Positions 13,037 through 20,116 of a stretch of 64,000 nucleotides of DNA are shown piece after piece. The DNA is from Planctomycetota bacterium. Its GTDB lineage: Bacteria; Planctomycetota; Phycisphaerae; Phycisphaerales; SM1A02. The stretch lies in assembly GCA_016873115.1 (NCBI GenBank), contig VGYB01000001.1:62001-126000 (forward strand). Direction: 5' to 3'. Numbering within the stretch: position 1 is the first letter of the stretch; the number at the start of each line of letters is the position of its first letter. The notes under the pieces are model-generated. The model worked only from the letters and a program-made list of their open reading frames with translations, was not told the DNA's origin and did not search any database. Both the position numbers and the translations under genes were made by a program.

Positions 13037-14535
13037 GCGCCCTTCCCCACGCGCTCCATCACGCGCGCCTGGACGGTCTTGGCATCGACCGTCCCGCCCG
13101 AGGCCTTCATGACATGACCCATGATGCGGCCCATCGCCGCCATCTTGCCCGCACGCAGGTCTGCGGCAGCCTGGGCATTCGCCGCGAGAGCAGCGTCGAC
13201 CCAGGCATCCAACGCACTGTCGTCGCGCACGATCACCATGCCGGCGCGCTCGGCCGCGGCGCGGGGCTCATCGTCGCCGTCACAGAGCATGCCGAAGAGC
13301 GCGTCGGCCGAGCCGGCGTTGATGGTTCCCTCGTCGCGGAGCGCCATGATCCCCGCGACCTGCAGCGGCGTGATGCCCGCTCGGTGCAGCGGCCTTTGGC
13401 GCTCGTTGGCGTGCTTCATGCCGACATTGAGCAGGAACTTGGCGATCGCCAGCGCCGCAGCCGGCACGCTGCCAGCGTGGGCCACGCACGCGTCGTAGAA
13501 GTCGCTGAGGTCAGGCTCGGCCAGGATCTGTTCGGCATCCTTGCGGGCGAGCCCCCAGCTGCCGAGGTAGCGCTGTGCGCGGGCGGCGGGCAGTTCGACG
13601 AGCTCGCCACGCACGCGCGCGAGCCATGCATCATCGACCTCGACCCAGACGAGGTCAGGATCGGGAAAGTAACGATAGTCGTGGGCGTCTTCCTTCTCGC
13701 GCTGCAGCACCGTGATCAGGCGCACATCATCCCAGCCGCGTGTGGCCTTCATGCCTCGGCCCATCACGCGTCCATCCTGCTGCCATGCCTCGACCTGCCG
13801 CACCGCCTCATGTTCGATCGCGCCCTTGAGCGCACGGAAGGAATTCAGGTTCTTCACCTCGACCACCGGCGTGCGGACCTCGGTGCCGTCGGCAAGCGTG
13901 ATCGCCAGGTTCACATTGGGCTCGAACCGCATATGGCCCTTCTGCATGATGCCTTCGGTCACGCGCAGGTAGCGGCAGAGATCGCGGAGTTCCTGCGCGA
14001 ACTGCACGACCTCGTCCGCCGTCGTGAAGTCGGGCGCCGTGACAACCTCGAGCAGCGGCGTACCCGCGCGATTGAGGTCGACGAGTGAACCCTCGTACTC
14101 ATGACCACCGGGGAGTTCATGGCCGAGCTTGCCGGTGTCCTCCTCAAGATGCGCGCGGATGATGCCGATGCGGCGACCGCTGCCCTCGAGGCTCCAGGCG
14201 CCATCGGTGCACAGCGGCCGGTCGTACTGGCTGATCTGGTAGCCCTTGGGAAGATCCGGGTAGTAGTAGTTCTTGCGGTCCCAGCGACAGCGTCGCGCGA
14301 TCGAGCAGCCCAGGGCCATCCCGACCTTCATCGACATCTCCACGGCGCGGCGGTTCATGACCGGCAGCGCACCCGGCAGTGCCATCACCAAGGGATCGAC
14401 CAGCGTGTTGGGTGACGAGTCATACTGGCCGGGGTGGGCGAGGCTCGGCGCCCGCGTGAACATTTTGGTCCGCGTGGCGAGCTCGATGTGGATCTCAAGG
14501 CCGATGATCAGCCGGGTCGAGGCGATCGCGGGCAT
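13033..14535 (-). CDS. gatB: Aspartyl/glutamyl-tRNA amidotransferase subunit B
   Basis: 500 residues. GatB is the kinase/tRNA-binding subunit of GatCAB, which amidates Glu-tRNA(Gln) or Asp-tRNA(Asn). Family landmarks are LIIGLEIHIELAT at the start, RKNYYYPDLPKGYQISQYD, HLEEDTGKLGHE, DLNRAGTPLLEVVT and KNLNSFRALKGAIEHE. The C-terminal YqeY-like tail (AAADLRAGKMAAMGRIMGHVMKA) is also present. Several in-frame Met codons precede the conserved region back to 14625. I chose 14535, which places seven residues before LIIGLE; 14550 is equally possible and no ribosome site decides it. gatC and gatA lie together 36 kb away, so the complex is encoded at two loci. Confidence 0.93.
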   Translation of the reverse strand: MPAIASTRLIIGLEIHIELATRTKMFTRAPSLAHPGQYDSSPNTLVDPLVMALPGALPVMNRRAVEMSMKVGMALGCSIARRCRWDRKNYYYPDLPKGYQISQYDRPLCTDGAWSLEGSGRRIGIIRAHLEEDTGKLGHELPGGHEYEGSLVDLNRAGTPLLEVVTAPDFTTADEVVQFAQELRDLCRYLRVTEGIMQKGHMRFEPNVNLAITLADGTEVRTPVVEVKNLNSFRALKGAIEHEAVRQVEAWQQDGRVMGRGMKATRGWDDVRLITVLQREKEDAHDYRYFPDPDLVWVEVDDAWLARVRGELVELPAARAQRYLGSWGLARKDAEQILAEPDLSDFYDACVAHAGSVPAAALAIAKFLLNVGMKHANERQRPLHRAGITPLQVAGIMALRDEGTINAGSADALFGMLCDGDDEPRAAAERAGMVIVRDDSALDAWVDAALAANAQAAADLRAGKMAAMGRIMGHVMKASGGTVDAKTVQARVMERVGKGA

Positions 14536-14584
14536 CTGCGTCGGGGCCATTCGTGGCATGATACGAGGCATCGCCGGAGGCCCC

Positions 14585-15661
14585 ATGGACCCGATCTGCC
14601 TCGCCACCATCCTCATGTTCGCCACTGACCCACCGCGTCCGCTCGTCGATGTCGCACTCCGGCCGAGCCGGCGCTACATCGCACCCGACGCACCAATCAC
14701 CATCGAGGTGGATGGATCGGCGCGCCCCGGGCTGTCGGTCCAGGTGCTCGACTCGATCGGGCAGAGGGTTGGAGCGGTGATTCCCGGCGCGCCCGCCGTC
14801 GACCTGCGCGATGCCTTCACGGCGGCTCAGGCTCCTGAACGGGCGGTGTTCGTGCAGGCGTTCATCGGGGAGGAAGCCGTCGGTTCACCATTGGTCCTCG
14901 AGCCGCTCCGTGCTGCACCGGCATGCCGCACGATCCGCGCCACCGGCCCACGCGCACGCGGTCCATTCACCAAGGTGGTGGGCTGGGGCTCGTCCGTGCT
15001 GCCGGGGTGTGAGGCGGAGGCCGCATCGGTTGCACCCACCTGGATCGCTGGCGATCCCGTGGTCACATCGGGCTGGCGCATCTATCCCGAACGCGATGCC
15101 ATCATCGACACCGACAAGGGGCCGATCCGGATCGCCTTCGCCCCCGATGTCGCGCCCGGCACCGTGTGGACGACGCTGCAACTCGCCGAGGACGGGTTCT
15201 ATGACGGCACGAGCTTCCATCGCATCGTGCCGCAGGATGCGCAGGGCCATCCGTTCGTGATCCAGGGCGGGGATCTGCACGGCTCAGGCAACGGCACGCC
15301 TGGCTTCAATGTCGCGCTTGAGCCGAGTTCGCTGCCCTTCGACTACGGCGTGGTCGGCATGGCTCGTGCCGACGAACCCCACAGCGCGGGCAGCCAGTTC
15401 TTCATCGCACTCTCGCGTGAGGGCACATCGCGGCTCGATGGCCAATACTGCGCCTTTGCCTATGTGATCGATGGCGCCTCGACGATCAACCGGATCGCTG
15501 CACTGCCCATCGATGATCCCGCGACCGGACGGCCCGTCAAGGCACCGCGCATCGAAGCCATGAAGCTCGTGCCGGCCCCGCCGCGTCTTGCCAAGGTCGA
15601 CCGCACCGGCCAGCGCATCGATCGCGCCACAGCGCCGCCACCCGAACGCGACACGCGCTGA
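14585..15661 (+). CDS. Exported cyclophilin-type peptidyl-prolyl isomerase with N-terminal extra domain
   Basis: 358 residues. ATG at 14585 has GGAGG six bases upstream. The N-terminus is mildly hydrophobic (CLATILMFAT) and may be a short signal or anchor. Residues ~20-165 are a beta-rich region I do not recognise. Residues ~175-335 are a cyclophilin domain with FYDGTSFHRIVP (catalytic Arg), FVIQGGDLHG, GMARADEPHSAGSQFFIAL and an expected acidic loop. It probably catalyses proline isomerisation in the periplasm. A second, short cyclophilin is encoded at 16033-16527, so the pair may serve two compartments. Divergent from gatB. Confidence 0.88.
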   Translation: MDPICLATILMFATDPPRPLVDVALRPSRRYIAPDAPITIEVDGSARPGLSVQVLDSIGQRVGAVIPGAPAVDLRDAFTAAQAPERAVFVQAFIGEEAVGSPLVLEPLRAAPACRTIRATGPRARGPFTKVVGWGSSVLPGCEAEAASVAPTWIAGDPVVTSGWRIYPERDAIIDTDKGPIRIAFAPDVAPGTVWTTLQLAEDGFYDGTSFHRIVPQDAQGHPFVIQGGDLHGSGNGTPGFNVALEPSSLPFDYGVVGMARADEPHSAGSQFFIALSREGTSRLDGQYCAFAYVIDGASTINRIAALPIDDPATGRPVKAPRIEAMKLVPAPPRLAKVDRTGQRIDRATAPPPERDTR

Positions 15662-15670
15662 CCGGCAGGC

Positions 15671-16033
15671 TCAGAGCTCGGTGTACTTGTCGCGGCGGCC
15701 ACGCGCCTTCTCGACGGGGTACTTCTCGGCGTTGCGCTTGATCTTGGCCTGCGCTGCCTCGGCGAGATCGATGTCGAAGGCATCCGCCAGGAGGATCGAG
15801 AAGAGGAACACATCAGCGACCTCCTCGCGCACCCGCGCCACGGCCGCGGCATCGAGCCGCTTGCACTCATCGGTCGTCTTCCAGAGGAAGACTTCCTGAA
15901 GCTCGGCAGCCTCGATGGCCAGCCCTTGCGCGAGGTTTTTCGGATCGTGGAACTGCGCCCAGTCGCGCTCATCGCGGAAGGCAAGGATGGCCCGACGGAT
16001 CGACTCGAGCCGATCTGGTGCGACCTCCATCAT
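15671..16033 (-). CDS. MazG-like nucleotide pyrophosphohydrolase
   Basis: 120 residues, single-domain MazG/dUTPase-like all-helical protein. The metal-binding acidic pattern is visible as GLAIEAAELQEVFLW (ExxxE-type) and REEVADVFLFSILLAD (EExxD). Such short forms hydrolyse non-canonical or excess NTPs to NMP and PPi; the substrate is not predictable. Its ATG overlaps the stop of the cyclophilin gene by one base, giving a two-gene operon. Confidence 0.88.
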   Translation of the reverse strand: MMEVAPDRLESIRRAILAFRDERDWAQFHDPKNLAQGLAIEAAELQEVFLWKTTDECKRLDAAAVARVREEVADVFLFSILLADAFDIDLAEAAQAKIKRNAEKYPVEKARGRRDKYTEL

Positions 16034-16527
16034 CAGCGACCGGCCGGCTGATGCATGTTCACGGTCACCTTGGTCATGCGCGGTGCCTTCTCCGGCGTGC
16101 CGTTGCGACGATCACGCAGCGGCGTGGCAGCGAGCTTCTCGACCACATCCATGCCCTTGGTGATCTTCCCGAATGCCGTGTACTGGCGATCGAGGTGCTG
16201 GCAGTGCTCACGGGTGAGGCACACGAAGAACTGGCTGCCGGCACTGTCGGGATGACCGCTGCGCGCCATGCTCAGGACGCCGGGAACATGCGGGCGATCG
16301 TTGAACTCGGCCTTGATGGTCCAGCCGGGGCCTCCCGTGCCGTCACCCTTGGGGCAACCGCCCTGGATCACGAAGCCGGGAAGGATGCGGTGGAAGGCCA
16401 GACCGTCGTAAAACCCCTTGCGGGCGAGCTTCAGGAAGTTCTCCGCGTGCCCGGGGGCCACATCGTTCCAGAGCTCGAGTTCAAGGGTTCCGTGGTCAGT
16501 CTCGACGGTGACGGTGGGGTAAGCCAT
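16033..16527 (-). CDS. Cyclophilin-type peptidyl-prolyl cis-trans isomerase (short form)
   Basis: 164 residues, essentially one cyclophilin domain without signal peptide, so probably cytosolic. Key blocks are FYDGLAFHRILPGFVIQGG (catalytic Arg in FHR, QGG), SMARSGHPDSAGSQFFVCL and LDRQYTAFGKITKGMDVVEK. The domain lacks the Trp of human cyclophilin A, as is usual in bacterial forms. ATG 16527 has TACAGT nine bases upstream and no ribosome-binding site. First gene of an operon with the MazG-like gene. Confidence 0.93.
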   Translation of the reverse strand: MAYPTVTVETDHGTLELELWNDVAPGHAENFLKLARKGFYDGLAFHRILPGFVIQGGCPKGDGTGGPGWTIKAEFNDRPHVPGVLSMARSGHPDSAGSQFFVCLTREHCQHLDRQYTAFGKITKGMDVVEKLAATPLRDRRNGTPEKAPRMTKVTVNMHQPAGR

Positions 16528-17638: not shown

Positions 17639-17713
17639 GGCCGCGTACCCAAGTGGCCTAAGGGGCTAGATTGCAAATCTGGTATTTCGTGGGTTCAAAT
17701 CCCACCGCGGCCT
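17639..17713 (+). tRNA. tRNA-Cys (anticodon GCA)
   Basis: 75 nt folding into a full cloverleaf. The acceptor stem GGCCGCG/CGCGGCC has seven perfect pairs. The D arm has a three-pair CCC/GGG stem. The anticodon stem CTAGA/TCTGG holds loop TTGCAAA, so the anticodon is GCA. The T arm is GTGGG-TTCAAAT-CCCAC, and the discriminator base is U. The CCA end is not encoded. A strong terminator starts seven bases later, so it is a single-tRNA transcript. An AT-rich box (CTATAT, 17615-17620) and TTGACG (17590-17595) upstream are a plausible but widely spaced promoter shared with the divergent gene. Confidence 0.96.
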
Positions 17714-17720
17714 TACGAAA

Positions 17721-17753
17721 CGACCCCGCCACTCGGCGGGGTCGTTGTCGTTT
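17721..17753 (+). terminator. Rho-independent terminator of tRNA-Cys
   Basis: Perfect 10-bp GC-rich stem CGACCCCGCC (17721-17730) / GGCGGGGTCG (17735-17744) with loop ACTC. It is followed by a T-rich tail (TTGTCGTTT). Confidence 0.9.
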
Positions 17754-17808
17754 GGGGATCTGCCGACTGCGTGGCTCGCCGCGCAGGGTTGGGCTCGCTT
17801 CGCGATCG

Positions 17809-19215
17809 TCAGCGACCGCGGACCTCGCCGACCTTGCCCGAAGGATTCACGTCGAAACCCGCCCGCGGCTTTTCCTGCGCGTCGTAGAGCACGCTGCCGC
17901 TGGCACCGTCGAGCAGCGTGAAGGCATCGATCCGCATGCGTTCGTTGGTGTCGAACCACTGCACGCTGGCTTGGCCCCCCGCGAGCGTGCTGGCATCGAT
18001 CCGGCGCGCACCACCCTGGTCGAACCACTGCAGGCTGGTCTGGCCATCCGCAAGCGTGAACGCATCGAGTCGGCGATTCTCGCCGCCATCCAGCCATTGC
18101 AGGCTTGCGACGCCGTCAGTGAGCGTGAAGGCGTCGAGCCGCTTGCGTTCGCGAGTGTCGAACCACTGCATGCTGGCCTGGCCGTCCGCCAGGGTCGACG
18201 CATCCATGCGCAGGCGACCCGCACCGTCGAACCAGTGCAGGCTCGACTGGCCATCGGGCAGGGTCGTGCCATCGAGCCGCCGGGTACCCTCGGGGTCGAG
18301 CCAGTGCAGACTCGCCTGGCCATCGGCGAGCGTGAAGACATCCACGCGCACGGTCTCATTGGTGTCGTACCACTGCATGCTGGCGCCCCCATCGGAGAGC
18401 GTGAAGGCATCCATGCGGAGGTTGCCGGCGGTGTCGAGCCACTGCAGGCTGGCTTGGCCGTCAGCGAGCGTGAAGATGTCCATGCGGCGACGCTCGCGAT
18501 CGTCGAACCACTGCATGCTCGCCTGGCCATCCGGCGTCGTGAAACCGTCGATGCGCTCGCGGCCTCCGGAATCGATCCACTTGAGGCTGGAGTTGCCGTC
18601 GCCAAGCACGAAGGCATCGAGGCGATCCTGCCCGGAGCGATCGGCGATCTTGAAGCTCGCCTGGCCATCGCGCAGGGTGGAGAGGTCGACGCGCCGGGTC
18701 TCGCCGACATCGAAGAGTTGCAGGCTGGCCTGACCCGTGGGCAGCGTGAACGCATCCAAGCGGCGGCGACCGGTTCGATCGAAGAACTGCAGGCTGGCCT
18801 GGCCATTCTCGAGCGTGCCCATGTCCATGCGCCGATACTGGTCCTGATCGAAGAACTGCATGCTCGACTGGCCGCTGGCGAGCGTGAAGACATCGAGTCG
18901 GATGCCCCCGAAGACATCGCTCCACTGCATGGCGGCATCGCCTTCACCGGTGGTGAAGGCGTCGAGGCGAAGGGCTCCATTGGCGTCGTACCACTCGGTC
19001 GAGGCATCGCCGTTGTCGGCGGCATACGCGATGAATCGCTCCATCCCGTTGCCATCGACGATCTCGAGCTTGCGCACCCGGAGTTCACTGCGGTTGGACG
19101 CGGTGTAGGCCACGACGCACGCCCCGATCGCGAGCGCCGCGAGGATGTTCATGGTCGTGCGCTGGCGTGCGACCGTGGCTTCAAGTTGCTGGACCCGCTC
19201 GTCGATGGTTGGCAT
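17809..19215 (-). CDS. Membrane-anchored protein of seventeen 23-residue repeats
   Basis: 468 residues. A short N-terminal coiled-coil-like segment (ERVQQLEATVARQ) precedes one membrane helix (~22-40, NILAALAIGACVVAY). Residues 60-450 are then seventeen consecutive repeats of exactly 23 residues, with no insertion or deletion. The consensus is R-hydrophobic-D-x-F-T-L-x-D-G-Q-A-S-[LM]-Q-W-[FL]-D-x5. Each repeat holds two short alternating strands separated by a Gly turn, which suggests a beta-solenoid or other stacked beta fold. This is inference. GAGGTG precedes the ATG at 19215. An outward-facing rod anchored in the membrane is likely. I know no characterised protein of this exact build. It stands alone between tRNA-Cys and the DNRLRE gene. 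Confidence 0.88.
   Translation of the reverse strand: MPTIDERVQQLEATVARQRTTMNILAALAIGACVVAYTASNRSELRVRKLEIVDGNGMERFIAYAADNGDASTEWYDANGALRLDAFTTGEGDAAMQWSDVFGGIRLDVFTLASGQSSMQFFDQDQYRRMDMGTLENGQASLQFFDRTGRRRLDAFTLPTGQASLQLFDVGETRRVDLSTLRDGQASFKIADRSGQDRLDAFVLGDGNSSLKWIDSGGRERIDGFTTPDGQASMQWFDDRERRRMDIFTLADGQASLQWLDTAGNLRMDAFTLSDGGASMQWYDTNETVRVDVFTLADGQASLHWLDPEGTRRLDGTTLPDGQSSLHWFDGAGRLRMDASTLADGQASMQWFDTRERKRLDAFTLTDGVASLQWLDGGENRRLDAFTLADGQTSLQWFDQGGARRIDASTLAGGQASVQWFDTNERMRIDAFTLLDGASGSVLYDAQEKPRAGFDVNPSGKVGEVRGR
17866..19038 (-). repeat. 69-bp tandem array (17 copies) coding for 23-residue repeats
   Basis: Seventeen in-frame 69-bp units inside the repeat protein. Copies are conserved at protein level (R-x-D, T-L-x-x-G-Q-A-S, Q-W-F-D) but diverged at DNA level, so the array is old and selected rather than freshly amplified. 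Confidence 0.93.
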
Positions 19216-19285
19216 GGTTCACCTCGGTCCCAAGACGGTACCCGAAGTGCCCGGAGATCCGAACGATTCCCCCTGCGCGACCTGC

Positions 19286-20116
19286 TCAGCCCCAGTCGCC
19301 AAGCAGGATGGCCAGATCACCCCCATCCACCACACCGTTCAAGCTCAGGTCGGCCGGACTGACGGCCCCCTGTCCCCACTGTCCAAGCAGGATCGCCAGG
19401 TCCGCGCCATCCACCACGCCACTTGAGTTGAGGTCGGCTGGTCGGTTCGATGGCGGCAGGTAGTTCACGACCAACAGCGGTTGATTGGCAGAAGCCTCTC
19501 GCGCATCGAACCGCTTGACCGTGGTCGCTGTGGCCTCATTGCCCTTGATGACCCAACCGTGGTTGGACGAGGGATTGTTGATCCAGCCCTGGACATCAGC
19601 CACGAGTGCAGCGGTCGAGTTCCAGGTGTAGAACCCGACCGACGAGACGCTCTTGGTCGCACTGGGCGTGCTCGTGAACACCCCACCGGGCGTCGGCCAG
19701 AGAACGGTCGGGTAGACCTGGTAGTTCCAGGTGCTGTCGCCGATGCCAGCGTTGGCACCCGCTCCACCGAACGCGAAGGCCGTGCCCTCGGTCCACGGCA
19801 GCGAGCAGCGATGCAGGCCGACGGTCTGCGAACCCGATTGCGTCTGGCTCATGGAGAGCCGGAGCGTGACGCTGGTGATGGTGCTGCCCGCCGGAATCGC
19901 GCTGAAGTTGAAGCGCATCAAGCCGCGGCGGATGGTGGCACCTCCATTGTCGCCGACACGGCCCGCGTAGACGTTGTAGGCAGCGCCGAGGGCATACTCG
20001 CCGGTGGGATCCTCGATGAGCGTGGCATCGGCCGCCGAGCCAAGCTGGATCGAGTCGGCTTGGACGGCGATGCAGGGCAAGGCCGCCAGAAGCACCATGG
20101 ACCAAGAACAACGCAC
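19286..20116 (-). CDS. Secreted DNRLRE-domain protein with dockerin-like C-terminus
   Basis: 276 residues. A signal peptide (WSMVLLAALPCIAVQA) is followed by a DNRLRE-type beta-sandwich found in exported adhesive or carbohydrate-associated proteins. Landmarks are DATLIEDPTGEYALGAAYN, GLMRFNFSAIPAGSTITS (rest of motif: LRLS) and a final FDAREASANQPLLVV. Two dockerin-like loops close the protein ([18 protein letters not shown] and ADLSLNGVVDGGDLAILL), and the chain ends LLGDWG. GTG at 20116 lies three bases after the stop of the upstream nuclease gene; ATG 20098 is the alternative. The two genes probably form one transcript of dockerin-tailed secreted proteins. Confidence 0.87.
   Translation of the reverse strand: MRCSWSMVLLAALPCIAVQADSIQLGSAADATLIEDPTGEYALGAAYNVYAGRVGDNGGATIRRGLMRFNFSAIPAGSTITSVTLRLSMSQTQSGSQTVGLHRCSLPWTEGTAFAFGGAGANAGIGDSTWNYQVYPTVLWPTPGGVFTSTPSATKSVSSVGFYTWNSTAALVADVQGWINNPSSNHGWVIKGNEATATTVKRFDAREASANQPLLVVNYLPPSNRPADLNSSGVVDGADLAILLGQWGQGAVSPADLSLNGVVDGGDLAILLGDWG

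What the first reader, a model, noticed from the sequence alone, without database searches (positions are those of the whole stretch)
17866..19038. Seventeen 23-residue repeats in perfect register on a membrane anchor
Residues 60-450 divide into 17 units of exactly 23 residues, with an R-x-D / T-L-x-D-G-Q-A-S-L-Q-W-F-D pattern and no indel. DNA copies are diverged, so length is held by selection. Two strands per unit separated by a Gly turn imply a regular beta stack, projecting from a single N-terminal helix. I know no characterised fold with this unit, so it may be an undescribed surface rod or ligand-binding array.
Basis: seen in the sequence. Interest (0 to 1): 0.6.

Follow-up and report, generated by a model that had tools for sequence, protein, structure and literature searches.

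The report
Membrane-anchored giant beta-hairpin sheet
A planctomycete bacterium makes a membrane-anchored protein built from about 18 copies of a 23-residue hairpin, predicted to form one very long flat beta-sheet like the sheets engineers built from the Lyme protein OspA; it is the longest found here of an unnamed, widespread bacterial family.

Summary
The gene is on the minus strand (window 19215-17809, 468 aa). Residues 60-450 hold 17 gap-free 23-residue units, and the motif runs back to residue 44, giving 18. Seven other genomes of the genus carry it without indels (dN/dS 0.07; repeats 0.05). The claim of an uncharacterised fold is not supported. A profile of the unit finds essentially only engineered OspA single-layer beta-sheets in the PDB (best E 6e-9; reversed control none). 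A six-unit AlphaFold2 model (pLDDT 92, five models agree) superposes on those sheets at 2.2-2.8 A over 137 of 138 residues. Covariation among 334 unit pairs supports the same strand register. Pfam and NCBIfam hold no valid family. Relatives with 3-11 units occur in 91 of 392 sampled phylum genomes and in Nitrospirota, usually coiled coil + membrane helix + hairpins, exported by the positive-inside rule. Unlike OspA and CPAP sheets, one face is fully hydrophobic and the other polar and far more conserved. Best reading: a ~17 nm anchored beta-rod whose hydrophobic faces laminate in pairs and whose polar face meets a partner. Fold and anchoring are well supported; lamination and function are inferred.

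The parts
17809..19215 (-). CDS of the repeat protein, 468 aa, ATG start at 19215
   Evidence: Open frame; seven orthologues at 88-94% with dN/dS 0.069
19220..19225 (-). Shine-Dalgarno-like GAGGTG, 4 nt before the start codon
   Evidence: Read directly from the sequence
19156..19206 (-). Short N-terminal amphipathic/coiled-coil stretch, residues 4-20 (IDERVQQLEATVARQRT), presumed cytoplasmic
   Evidence: Sequence; helix in the model, at low confidence; 'RLxxLE' coils recur in relatives
19096..19152 (-). Transmembrane anchor helix, residues 22-40
   Evidence: Hydropathy; low pLDDT in the soluble-protein model
19018..19086 (-). Unit 1, junction/N-cap hairpin, residues 44-66 (ELRVRKLEIVDGNGMERFIAYAA)
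   Evidence: In register with the repeats; the same 'RLxxVD' start recurs in relatives
17845..19017 (-). Units 2-18, 17 tandem 23-residue beta-hairpins, residues 67-457
   Evidence: Period, AlphaFold2, covariation, OspA profile match
18190..18603 (-). Units 8-13, residues 205-342, the fragment modelled at pLDDT 92
17812..17844 (-). C-terminal tail, residues 458-468

Best explanation
An exported, single-pass membrane-anchored protein whose ~18 hairpin repeats form one continuous antiparallel single-layer beta-sheet of about 36 strands (36 x 4.8 A, about 17 nm if straight), the natural counterpart of OspA-derived engineered extended sheets. Each unit is strand a (columns 5-10), a six-residue turn DxxGxx (11-16), strand b (17-22) and a five-residue turn around DG (23, 1-4). 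Columns 5,7,9,18,20,22 form one uncharged hydrophobic face (A, L/M, W, L/M, A, T); columns 6,8,10,17,19,21 form a polar face with Arg, Asp, Gln, Ser and Phe ladders. Steps, in order of support: hairpin sheet and register (prediction, covariation and solved structural matches agree); anchoring and export (hydropathy and positive-inside bias of the family); hydrophobic faces buried by lamination of two sheets, probably as a coiled-coil-linked dimer (inferred from composition); conserved polar face as the working surface that meets a partner or wall polymer while the array sets reach (inferred from selection).
For: Profile of 12 diverse five-unit stretches against the PDB: the first seven of ten listed sequences are OspA, six of them engineered extended sheets at E 5.9e-9 to 3.4e-5; the reversed profile finds no OspA. 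Even the single sequence ranks OspA sheets first (E 0.068). Six-unit model pLDDT 91.6, five models 87.8-91.6; Z 13.3-14.2, 2.2-2.8 A over 137 of 138 residues to ten OspA-sheet entries; Foldseek ranks the same entries first. Registers a/b i+j=27 and b/next-a i+j=50 give the highest mean covariation of 156 combinations tested, and 0 of 300 row shuffles reach it. Face A 0% charged, face B 36%; family-wide 1.7% against 31%. dN/dS face B 0.016, face A 0.108; 8 against 26 amino-acid changes, paired Wilcoxon p 0.006. Topology: K/R 358 on the N side of the helix, 126 on the C side, 90 members.
Against: The full-length model is less certain: five models range from 43 to 81 in mean pLDDT, pTM 0.55, so shape over 17 nm (straight, coiled or folded back) is unknown. 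The six-unit alignment stacks different unit blocks of one protein, which favours a periodic answer. Neighbouring copies also covary at lag 23 (0.90) and register 27/48 scores almost as high (1.26 against 1.37), so covariation alone does not exclude a parallel solenoid. The K/R count near this protein's own helix is balanced (2-3 on each side), so its topology rests on relatives. Nothing tests dimerisation, location or ligand.
Confidence: 0.72

Rival explanations
1. Parallel beta-solenoid of curli/HET-s type: each 23-residue unit is one coil and identical columns stack 4.8 A apart.
For: Two strands and two Gly turns in 23 residues is also the arithmetic of curli-type coils (from general knowledge); lag-23 column covariation is positive (0.90).
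Against: For both models the nearest folds are antiparallel sheets, not solenoids. The profile matches OspA sheets and no solenoid. Antiparallel registers 27/50 score 1.37. An Arg at column 17 of every unit would stack unpaired. Lag-23 covariation is expected from shared ancestry of neighbouring copies.
Confidence: 0.08
2. The sheet curls into a closed shell or barrel, as YD/Rhs repeats do, and encloses a cargo or pore.
For: Full-length model hits Teneurin-like and Rhs shells in Foldseek at E about 1e-10; the 'YDxxG' turn recalls YD repeats; one relative touches Pfam RHS_repeat at E 0.19; one face is hydrophobic.
Against: TM-scores to those shells are about 0.1-0.15 with rmsd near 40 A; the six-unit model fits flat OspA sheets far better. 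Many relatives have only 4-6 units, too few to close a shell, and no plug or cargo domain is present.
Confidence: 0.1
3. Passive periplasmic ruler or tether: the sheet only sets a fixed distance between the inner membrane and the wall or outer membrane.
For: Unit number is 18 in 8 of 8 genus members that have the gene and no indel occurs; about 17 nm is on the scale of a periplasm; coiled coil plus membrane helix anchors one end.
Against: A passive spacer would not predict that one particular face is the most conserved part (dN/dS 0.016); no wall- or outer-membrane-binding domain follows the array; relatives vary from 3 to 11 units.
Confidence: 0.2
4. The array is laid on a membrane or another protein by its hydrophobic face instead of pairing with a second copy.
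For: Face A is continuous and uncharged; MORN arrays, of similar hairpin design, were long assumed to bind lipid (PMC7725318).
Against: MORN1 did not bind liposomes and instead dimerised (PMC7725318); a designed OspA sheet with hydrophobic faces pairs sheet to sheet (described in PMC4642933).
Confidence: 0.2

Closest known systems
Engineered OspA single-layer beta-sheets / peptide self-assembly mimics (2OY8, 2OY7, 2HKD, 6KK9, 3EEX; Makabe 2006, Biancalana 2010)
   Same: 23-residue hairpin period, antiparallel single-layer sheet, 2.2-2.8 A over 137 of 138 residues, same register by sequence profile. 3EEX, the best profile hit, carries F/L at the hydrophobic-face columns.
   Different: Those are man-made from a native sheet of few hairpins and capped by globular domains. 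This is natural, has about 18 hairpins, no caps, a membrane anchor, and one fully hydrophobic face. 14-17% identity.
CPAP/Sas-4 TCP (G-box) domain
   Same: Natural free-standing single-layer antiparallel sheet without flanking domains (PMC3776556); Z 9.3-10.7.
   Different: Eukaryotic; PDG turns; both faces solvent exposed and monomeric (PMC3776556); fit 4.5-5.6 A over about 108 residues; no profile match.
MORN repeats
   Same: 23-residue hairpins with two six-residue strands and five- and six-residue loops (PMC7725318); by my column mapping its aromatic residues fall on the face equivalent to face A; Z 8.5-9.1.
   Different: No GxG or YEGEW motif, no Pfam MORN hit, rmsd about 6 A.
YD/Rhs repeats (Rhs, Teneurin)
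   Same: Hairpin repeats of similar length with a YDxxG-like turn; Foldseek local hits.
   Different: Those close into shells; TM about 0.1-0.15; no Pfam hit for this protein.

Membership tests
OspA-type single-layer beta-sheet (fold class) | Antiparallel beta-hairpin meander in one layer | tested here: met
   Model superposes on ten OspA-sheet entries, Z 13.3-14.2; covariation register. Prediction, not a solved structure.
OspA-type single-layer beta-sheet (fold class) | 23-residue hairpin period | tested here: met
   18 units of exactly 23; in register with engineered OspA hairpins
OspA-type single-layer beta-sheet (fold class) | Both faces polar and solvent exposed | tested here: not met
   Face A 0% charged and 76% hydrophobic
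OspA lipoprotein family (homology) | OspA globular end domains around a short sheet | tested here: not met
   Protein is coil + helix + repeats only; no Pfam match to OspA
MORN repeat | GxG and YEGEW motifs, Pfam MORN match | tested here: not met
   Motifs absent; no MORN model listed with E up to 10
CPAP TCP10 C-terminal domain | Sequence profile match to TCP10_C | tested here: not met
   No Pfam match and no PDB profile match, though the fold is similar
YD/Rhs repeat | RHS_repeat profile match and closed shell | tested here: not met
   No Pfam match for this protein; TM about 0.1-0.15 to shells
DUF2158 (PF09926) | Full-length domain match | tested here: not met
   Above the gathering score (E 3.9e-6), but the best stretch covers 19 of 50 positions, and none of eight relatives matches
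Curli-type beta-solenoid | Parallel coils with stacked identical columns | tested here: inconclusive
   Models and profile point to an antiparallel sheet, but lag-23 covariation is positive

The most novel reading that the evidence does not exclude
A natural, soluble, laminated cross-beta architecture: two membrane-linked copies press their continuous Trp/Leu faces together into a two-sheet rod of defined length, non-amyloid and encoded in a single gene, matching what was built by design from OspA, in a widespread unnamed bacterial envelope family.
Probability: 0.35. Interest if true: 0.75.

Novelty: new variant of a known kind. Interest (0 to 1): 0.55.

Why it matters
Free-standing single-layer beta-sheets were described as unique to CPAP among natural proteins (PMC3776556, 2013) and otherwise made by engineering OspA. 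Here is a bacterial family, in about a quarter of sampled planctomycete genomes and without a valid Pfam or NCBIfam model, that appears to build such sheets with the same 23-residue unit, up to about 36 strands. It offers natural material on how long uncapped sheets stay soluble and unaggregated, a ready scaffold for design, and a candidate envelope component for a phylum whose cell surface is poorly understood.

Tried and rejected
DUF2158 (Pfam hit above cut-off on this protein): partial, absent in relatives, rejected. PHROGs hits: no matched stretch passed on its own and the families have no function. Phage records and viral contigs: no relatives. Stacking all shifted six-unit windows for folding: MAFFT aligned them by overlap, so the alignment was discarded and replaced by non-overlapping blocks. 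Gene neighbourhood: order is collinear in genus members but neighbours (CBM96- and nuclease-like proteins, cyclophilins, tRNA-Cys) give no functional link. The key PSAM paper (PMC1693819) is not held, so its content is cited through papers that describe it. A PDB sequence search with a 22-residue-period relative found nothing convincing.

Full report
OBSERVATION. The finding's coordinates, 17866-19038, are residues 60-450 of a 468-residue protein encoded on the minus strand (19215..17809). Those 391 residues are 17 units of 23 with no indel. Counting by the conserved motif (Asp at column 11 and Arg at column 17 of a frame starting at residue 44) gives 18 consecutive units, residues 44-457, the first being the junction after the membrane helix and the last degenerate. 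Identity at lag 23 is 47.6%; 2000 shuffles reached at most 13.6% at any lag from 15 to 30. Unit DNA identity averages 58%, so the array is old.

CONSERVATION. Seven other genomes of the genus encode the protein at 88-94% identity, all 468 aa, no indels. They are collinear with the window over the stretches examined. dN/dS is 0.069 overall, 0.052 in the repeats, 0.21-0.26 in the coil and helix. A ninth genus genome (93% complete) lacks this gene in its assembly but keeps a five-unit paralogue. The unit number is thus fixed within the genus; because no indel occurs anywhere in the protein, this is compatible with, but does not by itself prove, selection on length.

FOLD. No Pfam or NCBIfam family fits. 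A profile from 12 diverse five-unit stretches against all PDB sequences lists ten sequences; the first seven are OspA, six of them engineered with extra hairpins, E 5.9e-9 to 3.4e-5. A reversed profile with the same period and composition finds no OspA. The engineered repeats inflate the score, as they repeat a hairpin; native-length OspA scores only 0.47. AlphaFold2 on the full protein with seven orthologues gave a best pLDDT of 81 but disagreement among models. A six-unit fragment (residues 205-342) with 24 in-register rows gave 91.6 and five concordant models. VIA-align places that model on ten OspA-sheet entries at Z 13.3-14.2 and 2.2-2.8 A over 137 of 138 residues, then CPAP TCP (Z about 10) and MORN (Z about 9); Foldseek agrees that OspA sheets come first.

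REGISTER. A repeat of odd length in an antiparallel meander requires the two registers to differ by 23. The predicted strands (columns 5-10, 17-22) give i+j = 27 within a unit and 50 between units. In 334 non-redundant unit pairs from relatives, mean corrected mutual information was highest for (27, 50) among 156 combinations, and no shuffle of 300 reached it. (27, 48) was close, and lag-23 columns also covary, as expected from shared ancestry of neighbouring copies; so this is supporting, not decisive, evidence.

TWO FACES. In this register columns 5,7,9,18,20,22 lie on one face: 76% hydrophobic, no charge, with Trp at column 9 in 12 of 18 units. Columns 6,8,10,17,19,21 lie on the other: 36% charged. 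The split holds family-wide (1.7% against 31% charged). Among orthologues the polar face has 8 amino-acid changes and the hydrophobic face 26 (paired Wilcoxon p 0.006; dN/dS 0.016 against 0.108). A continuous uncharged face on a single layer must be covered. The polar face, not the hydrophobic one, is what selection holds residue by residue.

FAMILY. Relatives occur in 17 of 61 near genomes, 35 of 198 class genomes and 91 of 392 phylum genomes, and on Nitrospirota plasmids annotated 'hypothetical protein'. Of 77 distinct arrays scored in the 23 register, most have 3-7 units, three have 11, and the genus protein with 18 is the longest. A sister group uses 22-residue units. The usual plan is a short coiled coil, one membrane helix (a few have lipobox- or signal-peptide-like starts), an 'RLxxVD' opening hairpin and the array. 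K/R count is 358 on the N side of the helix and 126 on the C side across 90 members, which puts the repeats outside the cytoplasm.

MECHANISM. Shown or well supported: exported anchored array; antiparallel single-layer sheet of 23-residue hairpins. Inferred: length about 17 nm (36 strands x 4.8 A); lamination of two sheets through the Trp/Leu face, helped by the N-terminal coil, as in the designed OspA cross-beta pair described in PMC4642933; a partner or wall polymer on the conserved Arg/Asp/Gln/Phe face. I put the fold near 0.85, export and anchoring near 0.85, lamination near 0.4, and the polar-face binding role near 0.35.

COMPARISON AND NOVELTY. The CPAP authors called a natural free-standing meander sheet unique and likened it to engineered OspA sheets (PMC3776556). 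MORN repeats share the 23-residue arithmetic (PMC7725318) but not the motifs. This family is therefore a new variant of a known kind: same unit geometry as engineered OspA, but natural, uncapped, anchored, far longer, and amphipathic. It is not a member of the OspA, MORN, CPAP or Rhs families by the tests made here. Common ancestry with any of them is not shown; short beta-hairpins may converge.

LIMITS. No experiment, no multimer prediction, no coordinates at hand to measure twist. The taxonomic survey outside Planctomycetota is thin. Fragment modelling used different blocks of the same protein as rows, which favours periodicity.

Noticed in passing
G000:C29:17003-17611 (L031): Own-genome paralogue (481 aa) with the same coiled coil, membrane helix and 'KLEIVD' start, followed by Gly-rich, diverged repeats of about 22 residues; found across the genus (L032-L039).
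   Followed up: partly
L041, L042, L046, L047, L048, L049, L054: Sister group of anchored proteins with 22-residue hairpin units (44 per pair), 8-11 units, in more distant class members.
   Followed up: partly
L100:3839-4633 and L101:3838-4498 (CP114563, CP114558): Candidatus Manganitrophus plasmids carry five-unit relatives directly behind a CusA/CzcA heavy-metal efflux gene; the L101 copy is annotated as two short ORFs.
   Followed up: partly
window 19286-20116 and 20120 to about 22018, strand -: Upstream neighbours: a CBM96-like protein and an Exo_endo_phos-like protein, both ending in dockerin-like repeats (e.g. [21 protein letters not shown]).
   Followed up: partly
window 14273-15661 (+) and 16033-16527 (-): Two cyclophilin-type peptidyl-prolyl isomerase genes close together on opposite strands.
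   Followed up: no
window 17671-19362, strand +: 563-aa antisense open frame spanning the whole repeat gene, a shadow of its codon usage.
   Followed up: yes
L003 (JASGCG010000079.1): Record titled 'Bacteroidia bacterium' but collinear with this planctomycete window at 84.5% over 7.2 kb; the title or binning looks wrong.
   Followed up: partly
window 17809-19215, strand -: Pfam DUF2158 scores above its gathering threshold on this repeat protein through partial matches; automatic annotation may mislabel it.
   Followed up: yes
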